The position numbers were made by a program, and so were the translations under genes. A stretch of 47,164 bases of DNA from Aquimarina litoralis (lineage in GTDB: Bacteria > Bacteroidota > Bacteroidia > Flavobacteriales > Flavobacteriaceae). Below, one piece after another: positions 14,338-18,093 of this stretch. The notes under the pieces are model-generated. The model was not told where the DNA came from. It worked only from the letters and a program-made list of their open reading frames with translations, and did not search any database. Every line of letters begins with the position of its first letter. Position 1 is the stretch's first letter. The stretch lies in contig NZ_WEKL01000001.1 in the NCBI RefSeq assembly GCF_019295435.1, positions 99,286-146,449 on the forward strand. The letters are read 5' to 3'.

Positions 14338-15261
14338 ATGAAGACTTTAAAATTACTTTCGGCTTTTATCTTAGGCTCAATACTATTTACTTCTTGTGTT
14401 GCTGAAGTAGTGGTAGAAGAAGATGTTTTTATTGAAGAACCAACAATCTCATTAGATCAATTACTAAATTCATATGAAATATGGTATGTAGATATAGAAC
14501 GCACGCAAGGTAATGGTGAAATTCCGTTTCTTCAGAAAGCATTTACGGTATCCTTCAGAAATGGGACGTTTTTTGCCAATAATAATCTAGTAGGTATTGG
14601 AAGCAATGGTAATGGTTTCGGATTAGATGTAGGTTTTTATAATACATTCGGAATGGAGGTTGATATTAGTCATGATATCGATGGAACATATAGTATTGAT
14701 GTAATTCAATTAGCGAACAATGAAATACGACTATATGATGGAGTTACTAATACAAGTTATTATTTAATTGGATATCAGAGAAACACATTTGATTATGATA
14801 AGGTGTTTTATGACAACATTCATTACTTTTTACATGAATATACAGCTTGGGAAAAAGTATATACTAGCGATTTTGGTGCATTGAATGAGTTTGATAACGA
14901 GAATTATTTACAGTTTTTGTATTACGGATCAGGAGATAATTTTAGAAGCTCACAAGATGTTAATGTGTCTAATATCAACGATATATACTACGATTATACG
15001 GGATATTATGCTGTTCAAGATGTACCTAATAATTTCTATATGAAAAATTTAACACTTGATTACGACTATTTGGGCAATGAATATTTCGAATTAACCGTTA
15101 TCAATGATAGTAGAATAGAATTATTACACCCTGCATCTGGTACAATTTATGAATTTGAAGGTAGAGGATACCTACAATTTAAATCTTCTAAAGATGGGAA
15201 ACCGTCTCAGAATGATAAGAAAAGAATTAAAAAAGCGGATTTTATGAAGCTTACAAAATAG
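14338..15261 (+). CDS. Hypothetical lipoprotein
   Basis: 307 residues, not recognised beyond its export. Signal peptide 1-19 with lipobox LFTSC and lipidated Cys20, then an acidic linker VEEDVFIEEP typical of surface-directed lipoproteins of this phylum. The rest is rich in Tyr, Asn and Asp with predicted beta strands. Two segments look alike: one at ~45-160 ending RLYDGVTNTSYYLIGYQR, and one at ~185-285 ending ELLHPASGTIYEFEGRGYLQF, suggesting two related beta-domains. The C-terminus is strongly basic. Preceded by a sigma-54-like promoter and hairpin, followed by a strong terminator, so it is probably monocistronic. Confidence 0.7.
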   Translation: MKTLKLLSAFILGSILFTSCVAEVVVEEDVFIEEPTISLDQLLNSYEIWYVDIERTQGNGEIPFLQKAFTVSFRNGTFFANNNLVGIGSNGNGFGLDVGFYNTFGMEVDISHDIDGTYSIDVIQLANNEIRLYDGVTNTSYYLIGYQRNTFDYDKVFYDNIHYFLHEYTAWEKVYTSDFGALNEFDNENYLQFLYYGSGDNFRSSQDVNVSNINDIYYDYTGYYAVQDVPNNFYMKNLTLDYDYLGNEYFELTVINDSRIELLHPASGTIYEFEGRGYLQFKSSKDGKPSQNDKKRIKKADFMKLTK

Positions 15262-15310: not shown

Positions 15311-15355
15311 GAAATCGCTCTACAAGAGAAATCTTGTCTGGGCGATTTCTTTTTT
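15311..15355 (+). terminator. Rho-independent terminator after the 14338 lipoprotein
   Basis: Outer stem GAAATCGC/GCGATTTC, inner stem ACAAGA/TCTTGT closed by a GAAA tetraloop, followed by six T. Confidence 0.85.
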
Positions 15356-15522: not shown

Positions 15523-15735
15523 ATGCTTAAGAAGATTTTAAACATTGATGAAAGCAAAAAACTTAGTAAAACCGAACAACAATCTATTCATGGAGGAAGC
15601 TTTCCCTTTTTTGATGAGTGTTGTGCTTGTGTTTTTAGACCGGCAAATAGACCATTTCCTATTTTGATTACACAATCATGTTCTGATCCTTGCCCAGTAG
15701 ATGGAAGTACGGAATATGAAGATACAGGATGTTAA
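15523..15735 (+). CDS. Cys-rich peptide with double-glycine-type leader (putative RiPP/bacteriocin-like precursor)
   Basis: 70 residues. The leader MLKKILNIDESKKLSKTEQQ-SIHGG has the shape of Bacteroidota double-glycine leaders: Leu/Ile-rich N-terminus, then LSKxEQxSIxGG, with cleavage expected after Gly25-Gly26 or close to it. The remaining ~44 residues carry six Cys (ECCAC, QSC, DPC and terminal GC), three Pro-rich turns and an acidic tail. Known GG-leader peptides are exported and cut by C39-peptidase ABC transporters; none is in this window. It stands alone between two terminators. Function is inferred only from leader shape and could be something other than a bacteriocin. Confidence 0.65.
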   Translation: MLKKILNIDESKKLSKTEQQSIHGGSFPFFDECCACVFRPANRPFPILITQSCSDPCPVDGSTEYEDTGC

Positions 15736-15743
15736 AATTTACA

Positions 15744-15769
15744 AAAGCGAACTTAGGTTCGCTTTTTTT
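15744..15769 (+). terminator. Terminator directly after the Cys-rich peptide gene
   Basis: Stem AAGCGAAC/GTTCGCTT, loop TTAG, then a T-run. It starts 9 bp after the stop codon, so the peptide gene ends its own transcript. Confidence 0.85.
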
Positions 15770-16539: not shown

Positions 16540-18093
16540 ATGGCAACTATAGCAGTAGATTTTGGAATAGAAGAAGCGCTAAGACAACTAGGTGTTTCTG
16601 ATCTAAATAAAGGAACTTCAACTGGAACCGATTGGTTTTCAAATGGTGAAGAAATCTCATCTTTCTCTCCGGTAGATGGTGATTTGATTGGAAAGGTTAC
16701 CACCACAACGAAAGAAGATTACGAAAAAGTAATAGCGGCGGCTCAATCTGCTTTTAAGTCATGGAAACTAATGCCTGCTCCACAGCGAGGTGAAATAGTA
16801 AGGCAGTTTGGAGAAGAGTTAAGGAGACTAAAAGAACCACTTGGTAAATTGGTTTCTTACGAAATGGGTAAATCATATCAAGAAGGTTTAGGAGAGGTTC
16901 AGGAGATGATAGATATTTGCGATTTTGCAGTAGGGTTATCTAGACAATTACATGGGCTTACAATGCATTCTGAAAGACCTGGTCATAGAATGTATGAACA
17001 ATATCATCCTCTAGGAATTGTTGGAATAATTTCAGCGTTTAACTTTCCAGTTGCTGTTTGGTCATGGAATACCGCTTTGGCATGGATTTGTGGAGATGTA
17101 TGTGTATGGAAGCCAAGTGAAAAAACACCACTTTGTGGAGTAGCTTGCCAGAATATTATCGCAAAGGTTTTAAAAGATAATAACCTTCCAGAAGGAATTT
17201 CTTGTTTGATCAATGGAGATTACCAGGTCGGAGAGTTAATGACTACCGACAAACGTATTCCATTAATTTCTGCTACAGGATCTACCAGAATGGGTAAAAT
17301 TGTGGGAGCAACAGTTGGACAACGTTTAGGAAAATCACTATTAGAACTTGGAGGTAACAATGCAATTATTGTAACACCAGATGCAGATATTAAAATGACA
17401 GTCATTGGTGCTGTTTTTGGAGCGGTAGGAACTGCAGGACAACGTTGTACTTCTACAAGAAGGTTGATCATTCATGAATCAATCTATGATAAAGTAAAGA
17501 ATGCTGTTGTAGATGCGTATAAACAATTAAGAATTGGAAATCCACTGGATGAAAATAATCATGTCGGACCTCTTATCGATACTGATGCGGTAAAAGGGTA
17601 TCAAAATGCACTTGAAAAAGTTGTTGAAGAAGGAGGTAATATCGTGGTAGAAGGAGGTGTACTTTCTGGAGAAGGATATGAAAGTGGATGTTATGTAAAA
17701 CCAGCAATTGCAGAAGCTAATAACTCTTTTGAGATTGTACAACATGAAACATTTGCACCTGTTTTATACTTACTGAAGTATGATGGAGATATTGAAAATG
17801 CTATTGAAGTACAAAATGGAGTAGCTCAAGGATTATCTTCAGCAATAATGACAAATAACCTTAGAGAAGCTGAAAGGTTTTTATCACATGCTGGTTCTGA
17901 TTGTGGTATTGCAAATGTAAACATTGGAACTTCTGGAGCAGAGATTGGTGGAGCTTTTGGTGGTGAAAAAGAAACAGGAGGAGGAAGAGAATCTGGTTCT
18001 GATGCCTGGAAAGTGTATATGAGAAGGCAAACTAATACTATAAATTACACTACTGAATTACCTCTTGCTCAGGGAATTAAATTTGATTTATAA
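16540..18093 (+). CDS. Aldehyde dehydrogenase, ALDH7 type (alpha-aminoadipate semialdehyde dehydrogenase-like)
   Basis: Oxidises an aldehyde to the acid with NAD(P)+; ALDH7 enzymes typically take 2-aminoadipate-6-semialdehyde from lysine breakdown. 517 residues. Catalytic features: Asn168 in SAFNFPVAVWSWN, Lys191 in WKPSEKTPL, general base Glu269 in LLELGGNNAIIV and nucleophile Cys303 in GTAGQRCTSTRR. The GGNNAI sequence and C-terminal GGEKETGGGRESGSDAWK are ALDH7-like. Cytoplasmic. A -7-like TATCTTTA lies at 16506-16513 and a strong terminator follows, so it is a single transcription unit. Because it follows the hydroxyanthranilate dioxygenase, action on a muconate semialdehyde cannot be excluded, but the sequence favours the ALDH7 group. 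Confidence 0.88.
   Translation: MATIAVDFGIEEALRQLGVSDLNKGTSTGTDWFSNGEEISSFSPVDGDLIGKVTTTTKEDYEKVIAAAQSAFKSWKLMPAPQRGEIVRQFGEELRRLKEPLGKLVSYEMGKSYQEGLGEVQEMIDICDFAVGLSRQLHGLTMHSERPGHRMYEQYHPLGIVGIISAFNFPVAVWSWNTALAWICGDVCVWKPSEKTPLCGVACQNIIAKVLKDNNLPEGISCLINGDYQVGELMTTDKRIPLISATGSTRMGKIVGATVGQRLGKSLLELGGNNAIIVTPDADIKMTVIGAVFGAVGTAGQRCTSTRRLIIHESIYDKVKNAVVDAYKQLRIGNPLDENNHVGPLIDTDAVKGYQNALEKVVEEGGNIVVEGGVLSGEGYESGCYVKPAIAEANNSFEIVQHETFAPVLYLLKYDGDIENAIEVQNGVAQGLSSAIMTNNLREAERFLSHAGSDCGIANVNIGTSGAEIGGAFGGEKETGGGRESGSDAWKVYMRRQTNTINYTTELPLAQGIKFDL

What the first reader, a model, noticed from the sequence alone, without database searches (positions are those of the whole stretch)
15523..15735. 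Orphan Cys-rich peptide with a double-glycine leader
LSKTEQQSIHGG looks like the leader used by C39-peptidase exporters, followed by a 44-residue core with six Cys. It sits alone between strong terminators with no maturation enzyme, immunity gene or exporter in 47 kb. It may use a transporter elsewhere and be a bacteriocin, signal or modified peptide.
Basis: partly seen in the sequence, partly recalled or inferred. Interest (0 to 1): 0.55.

Follow-up and report, generated by a model that had tools for sequence, protein, structure and literature searches.

The report
Secreted cysteine-rich peptide of Aquimarina
A marine bacterium carries a small gene for a probably secreted, disulfide-linked peptide, one of a few dozen scattered over its genome that seem to share one exporter and a set of unusual membrane enzymes that probably make their disulfide bonds.

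Summary
In detail: the 70-codon ORF at 15523-15735 has a double-glycine leader far above chance and a 45-residue, six-Cys core. The genome belongs with Aquimarina. Such leaders occur at 27 places in the genome at E<=0.01; 21 of the 27 lie more than 10 kb from exporter and fusion enzyme, so standing alone is the norm. The missed partner is a fusion of a C39-like domain without the catalytic Cys, a VKOR and a thioredoxin (here 'CVT'). It co-occurs with leaders and exporter over 299 Flavobacteriaceae and 66 congeners and holds the only four VKOR domains found in the genome, where no DsbB was found. Of 40 strong matches to this peptide's own family, 13 lie within 2 kb of a CVT. Best reading: exported in trans, three disulfides made by CVT. 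Cleavage, disulfides and activity (bacteriocin or signal) are untested.

The parts
15523..15735 (+). precursor peptide gene, 70 codons plus stop
15523..15597 (+). double-glycine leader, 25 residues, ends in GG
   Evidence: 38.0 bits in leave-one-out profile; GG invariant in 8 of 8
15598..15732 (+). core, 45 residues, Cys 33, 34, 36, 53, 57, 70 (numbers in the precursor)
   Evidence: all six Cys invariant in 8 of 8; omega 0.02-0.23 against 5 orthologues
15743..15766 (.). inverted repeat followed by T run, probable terminator of the peptide gene
   Evidence: listed on the minus strand; conserved in window plus 6 Aquimarina loci
15311..15355 (+). inverted repeat with T run, probable terminator of the gene upstream
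   Evidence: read; conserved in window plus 6 Aquimarina loci; not listed by the scan
14338..15261 (+). 307-aa putative lipoprotein, constant upstream neighbour in Aquimarina; not shown to belong to the system
   Evidence: 6 of 6 named Aquimarina loci; no Pfam match over its cut-off, none in NCBIfam

Best explanation
The ORF encodes a double-glycine precursor. The exporter on contig C51 (C39 peptidase-ABC protein, with an HlyD-family protein nearby) recognises the leader, cuts after Gly25 and exports the 45-residue core. The six Cys are closed into three disulfides, one of them probably Cys33-Cys70, by the CVT enzymes (C39-like domain without catalytic Cys, VKOR, thioredoxin), which would pass electrons to quinone. 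Exporter and CVTs work in trans for the few dozen precursors scattered over the genome. Outside the cell the peptide acts most likely as a bacteriocin-like effector on related bacteria (about 0.5), otherwise as a signal or other conserved secreted factor. Shown by computation: gene, leader, conservation, exporter, CVTs and their association with such peptides. Inferred: cleavage, export, disulfides, role of CVT, activity.
For: Leader. Conservation of leader and core. Complete C39-ABC with Cys, His and Asp in place plus HlyD in the genome. Leaders at 27 places at E<=0.01. 29 distinct peptides read in own-genome loci all have Cys in the core, 25 of 29 an even number; 13.2% of core residues are Cys against 0.65% in 35 large window ORFs. 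Leader genomes have CVT in 27 of 31 and exporter in 27 of 31 of those found in 299 Flavobacteriaceae; in 66 congeners CVT in 51 of 51 leader-positive against 3 of 15 negative, exporter orthologue 49 of 51 against 1 of 15. All 4 VKOR domains found in the genome are the CVTs and no DsbB was found. Each of the 4 own CVTs has a Cys-containing leader peptide 64-334 bases away. 13 of 40 strong matches to this peptide's family lie 48-1431 bp from a CVT. Outer Cys pair kept or lost together in 33 of 34 family rows.
Against: No measured product. The window peptide itself is not beside exporter or CVT; the 13 CVT-linked family members are all of the 4-Cys branch. Co-occurrence counts are not corrected for shared descent, and the Cys covariation rests on about two changes on a tree that includes those columns. 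Leaders without CVT: 4 of 31 genomes; without exporter: 4 of 31; CVT or exporter in leader-negative congeners: 3 and 1 of 15. The Pfam C39 match of the CVT fusion is over the cut-off in only 3 of 9 rows scanned as proteins and absent at E<=0.01 in 4 of 9. CVT topology is unsettled: hydropathy gives 4 to 7 hydrophobic stretches per row, and a C39-like domain on the periplasmic side would not meet an uncut leader. The conserved core argues against a fast-evolving toxin. AlphaFold2 gave no usable model (mean pLDDT 52).
Confidence: 0.62

Rival explanations
1. Same export and disulfide route, but the peptide is a signal or another conserved secreted factor, not a weapon.
For: Core under purifying selection, omega 0.02-0.23; same place in the genome in 6 of 6 named Aquimarina loci; LytTR-type regulator and kinase genes, so named by eye, beside the C59 CVT and in L052.
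Against: Dozens of unlike cores in one genome look more like an arsenal than one signal; bacteroidetocins, the nearest studied system, are toxins without an immunity gene.
Confidence: 0.3
2. The core is a RiPP with other modifications (for example lanthionines), and CVT has nothing to do with it.
For: The core has Ser and Thr; a family member in genome G148 lies within 12 kb of genes that look by eye like LanB and LanC (L049).
Against: Even Cys numbers and joint loss of the outer Cys pair fit Cys-Cys links; 13 of 40 family members are beside CVT.
Confidence: 0.1
3. CVT forms disulfides in general periplasmic proteins and its link to these peptides is incidental.
For: It is the only VKOR-type protein found and no DsbB was found, so it might serve all secreted proteins; 3 of 15 leader-negative congeners have it.
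Against: 12 of 15 leader-negative congeners lack it; four copies sit beside Cys-rich leader peptides in one genome.
Confidence: 0.15
4. The ORF is a chance frame, a decayed gene or a cytoplasmic metal-binding peptide.
For: No exporter nearby; NCBIfam leader model NF047798 scores 16.0 bits, below its cut-off of 23.5.
Against: Leader score, purifying selection, invariant GG and Cys in 8 of 8.
Confidence: 0.04

Closest known systems
Bacteroidetocins (Coyne et al. 2019, PMC6671954; I saw search passages and section 7)
   Same: Bacteroidota; GG leader; Cys-containing core of similar size (42 residues); C39-type ABC exporter; a thiol oxidoreductase needed for full activity; no immunity gene.
   Different: There one four-gene locus with a 15-residue leader and four Cys; here a 25-residue leader, six Cys, dispersed precursors, and an oxidase that is a C39-like-VKOR-thioredoxin fusion. 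Core similarity was not tested.
NCBIfam NF047798 leader_Chryseo, 'bacteriocin-like protein'
   Same: Leader pattern; 7 of 8 aligned orthologues match at E<=1, best 0.0022.
   Different: Window peptide is below the curated cut-off (16.0 against 23.5 bits).
VKOR-thioredoxin fusion proteins of bacteria (recalled; cyanobacterial VKOR is the known example)
   Same: VKOR match over the cut-off in 9 of 9 CVT rows; six redox Cys invariant.
   Different: An added N-terminal C39-like domain; genes next to GG-leader peptides.
C39-like domains without peptidase activity in type I secretion ABC proteins such as HlyB (recalled)
   Same: C39 fold suggested, catalytic Cys absent.
   Different: Here fused to an oxidoreductase, not to an ABC transporter.

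Membership tests
double-glycine peptides exported by C39-ABC transporters | N-terminal leader of the conserved kind ending in GG | tested here: met
   38.0 bits in leave-one-out profile against 6.1 for the best of 2000 shuffles
double-glycine peptides exported by C39-ABC transporters | GG kept in homologues | tested here: met
   invariant in 8 of 8 orthologues
double-glycine peptides exported by C39-ABC transporters | C39-ABC exporter in the genome | tested here: met
   734-aa protein on C51, C39 and ABC domains over cut-offs
double-glycine peptides exported by C39-ABC transporters | cleavage after GG and export | not testable with these tools
   needs peptidomics
NCBIfam NF047798 leader_Chryseo | score over the curated cut-off | tested here: not met
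   16.0 against 23.5 bits
bacteroidetocins | peptide gene beside a thiol oxidoreductase and a C39-ABC gene | tested here: not met
   no C39 or VKOR match of the genome in the window; family members in 13 other genomes do have CVT within 2 kb
bacteroidetocins | core similar to bacteroidetocin A or B | not tested
   their sequences were not fetched
class IIa bacteriocins | YGNGVxC motif in the core | tested here: not met
   absent from the translation
bacteriocins in general | growth inhibition of other bacteria | not testable with these tools
   bench test needed
lanthipeptides | lanthionine synthetase serving the peptide | not tested
   no genome search for LanM, LanB or LanC was run

The most novel reading that the evidence does not exclude
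A dedicated oxidative folding line for exported peptides: a C39-like domain that has lost its catalytic Cys, fused to a quinone-linked VKOR and a thioredoxin, recognises the same GG leader as the C39-ABC exporter (or docks on that exporter), so that the only VKOR- or DsbB-type disulfide source found in the cell is aimed at a genome-wide set of Cys-rich peptides, most of them encoded far from it.
Probability: 0.4. Interest if true: 0.72.

Novelty: new variant of a known kind. Interest (0 to 1): 0.5.

Why it matters
Gene finders that look for a peptide beside its exporter would miss most of these: 21 of 27 own leaders at E<=0.01 lie more than 10 kb from exporter and CVT, and congeners hold up to 45 such leaders. 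The CVT fusion offers a testable answer to how a flavobacterium in which no DsbB was found makes disulfide-rich secreted peptides, and a marker for finding them. In the held open-access library, searches pairing VKOR or vitamin K epoxide reductase with C39, bacteriocin or Bacteroidetes terms listed no paper on such a fusion; the lists were capped at 20, one search found 0 papers, and most subscription papers are not held.

Tried and rejected
PDB sequence search with A4: one chance-level hit, E 0.12. Chance ORF rejected. Sigma-70 scan: 2 sites against 3.2 expected; no clear conserved promoter was read in the alignment. The 307-aa lipoprotein as immunity protein: constant neighbour (6 of 6) but separated by a conserved terminator-like repeat; left open.

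Limits: searches scored at most 4 and 3 candidates per genome, so copy numbers there are lower bounds. In one search I used the 40 rows with E<=3.8e-17; one search did not list all its matches. The chance figure printed treats related genomes as independent and is not used. Family rows were picked by a motif that includes GG or GA and the four inner Cys, so only the outer Cys are informative; L100 broke the pattern, is counted there, and was left out of the tree (33 of 34 rows). Leader alignment A1 leaves out one of the 15 peptides (L041:5927), whose leader is less alike. The peptides were picked by a leader motif and cover the loci fetched, not the whole genome.

Full report
OBSERVATION. The ORF at 15523-15735 reads as the finding says: a 25-residue leader ending in GG and a 45-residue core with six Cys. 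A profile made of 13 other leaders of the same genome scores it at 38.0 bits; the best of 2000 shuffles of the peptide reaches 6.1 and the best of the 268 other window ORFs 4.9.

ORGANISM AND CONSERVATION. The window is G000:C10:99286-146449 of a 6.3 Mb draft genome. A scan of named genomes with the peptide found 8 loci: uncultured Aquimarina, A. latercula, A. amphilecti, A. spongiae, A. acroporae, A. mytili, a Dokdonia MAG, and in Psychroserpens a match to residues 1-31 only. In these six the gene follows the 307-aa putative lipoprotein and precedes an aldehyde dehydrogenase; the 3-hydroxyanthranilate dioxygenase between them was matched in 4 of 6. Against 5 orthologues omega is 0.02-0.23 for the core and 0.05-0.12 for the whole ORF; for the leader 0.06-0.20 in the 4 of 5 where dS could be computed. 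Repeats like terminators on both sides are conserved in window and six loci.

EXPORTER. PF03412 gives 7 places in the genome at E<=10, 4 over the cut-off, none in the window. The one on C51 is a C39-ABC protein of 734 aa, with Cys, His and Asp of the C39 triad in place; an HlyD-family protein starts 438 bases downstream with a 121-aa ORF between.

MANY LEADERS. The leader profile finds 41 places at E<=10 and 27 at E<=0.01 in the genome, the window's own included. The 29 distinct peptides picked by leader motif from the fetched own-genome loci all have Cys in the core, 25 of 29 an even number (binomial p 5e-5); Cys makes 13.2% of core residues but 0.65% in 35 large window ORFs. Only 6 of the 27 leaders lie within 10 kb of exporter or CVT.

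THE FUSION ENZYME, 'CVT'. The C39 hits on C59, C60, C1 and C85 are proteins of about 540 aa. Among 9 rows aligned (4 own, 5 from relatives), VKOR is over the Pfam cut-off in 9, thioredoxin_4 over it in 6, below in 2, absent in 1, and C39 over it in 3, below in 2 and absent at E<=0.01 in 4; in those 4 the C39-like part rests on the alignment. Six Cys, two in the VKOR loop, two in the VKOR CxxC and two in the thioredoxin CxxC, are invariant in 9 of 9 (the assignment to these sites is from knowledge of the families). At the C39 triad columns Cys is absent in 9 of 9, His in 8 of 9, Asp in 7 of 9. Each own CVT has a Cys-containing leader peptide 64-334 bases away; the C60 copy has one with GG upstream and one without GG downstream. 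PF07884 finds exactly these four VKOR domains in the genome and PF02600 (DsbB) none, while these searches ring in 3 and 7 of 14 control genomes.

ASSOCIATION. In 299 Flavobacteriaceae genomes leaders (E<=0.01) occur in 31, CVT (E<=1e-20) in 40, the exporter (E<=1e-150) in 63. CVT is in 27 of the 31 leader genomes (Fisher 1.6e-24), the exporter in 27 of 31 (4.7e-17), and 38 of 40 CVT genomes have the exporter (8e-29). Of 58 CVT places 34 have an exporter and 25 a leader within 10 kb. In 66 congeners CVT is in 51 of 51 leader-positive and 3 of 15 leader-negative genomes; the exporter orthologue (83% identity or more) is in 49 of 51 and 1 of 15, the two misses being 55% and 78% complete. With genomes at least 90% complete: CVT 48 of 48 against 3 of 10, exporter 48 of 48 against 1 of 10. 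Shared descent is not corrected for.

THE PEPTIDE'S OWN FAMILY. 51 of 66 congeners match the family profile at E<=0.01, many over the leader only; I took the 40 rows with E<=3.8e-17, in 30 genomes. Of these 40, 13 in 13 genomes lie 48-1431 bp from a CVT; in G304, G306, G322, G343, G346 and G348 the peptide gene directly follows CVT. All 13 are 4-Cys forms, and 4 of those genomes (G322, G343, G346, G348) also carry the 6-Cys orthologue elsewhere. Outside the genus, a 6-Cys member in G148 lies about 8 kb from CVT and 10 kb from the exporter, and a 4-Cys member in G288 is 0.6 kb from CVT. In 34 family rows the first and last Cys are both present in 20, both absent in 13, discordant in 1; on the tree 6-Cys and 4-Cys need two changes. 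This suggests a Cys33-Cys70 disulfide, with modest weight.

READING. Together this supports an exported, disulfide-rich peptide served in trans. That CVT makes the disulfides is an inference from its domains, its neighbours and the lack of another VKOR or DsbB match. That its C39-like domain brings precursor or exporter to it is a further inference; CVT topology is unsettled and could speak against it. Weapon or signal is open; I lean to bacteriocin-like because of the many unlike cores and the bacteroidetocin precedent, while the conserved core leans the other way.

KNOWN SYSTEMS. Nearest is the bacteroidetocin system, where GG leader, C39-type exporter and a thiol oxidoreductase make a Cys-containing toxin without an immunity gene (PMC6671954; passages and section 7). 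A 2023 survey of RiPP clusters in Bacteroidales (PMC10352776; passages only) holds no occurrence of VKOR, vitamin K, thioredoxin or disulfide. What differs here is the dispersed set of precursors and the C39-like-VKOR-thioredoxin fusion.

VERDICT. The peptide is a new member of the double-glycine peptides; the system around it is a new variant of a known kind.

Noticed in passing
L039:9774-13136 (own contig C59) and L052:10731-14389 (G012): Beside CVT, in the same order in both genomes, lie a small putative lipoprotein, a gene that looks by eye like a LytTR response regulator and one like a TPR histidine kinase; possible regulation of the system.
   Followed up: no
L044:5857-7224 (own contig C3): Five tandem Cys-containing leader peptides, four of them ending the leader in GA or GS instead of GG, upstream of a gene that looks by eye like acetate kinase.
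   Followed up: no
L049:526-8267 (G148): A member of the window peptide's family lies near genes that look by eye like LanB and LanC and near two other GG leaders of another kind.
   Followed up: no
L050:7788-8327 (G177) and L085:496-1110 (own contig C104): Two alike putative lipoproteins near leader peptides; they could be immunity or receptor proteins.
   Followed up: no
window 16540-18093: Aldehyde dehydrogenase scoring over the NCBIfam cut-off for L-piperidine-6-carboxylate dehydrogenase (835.1 against 730 bits), next to 3-hydroxyanthranilate 3,4-dioxygenase.
   Followed up: no
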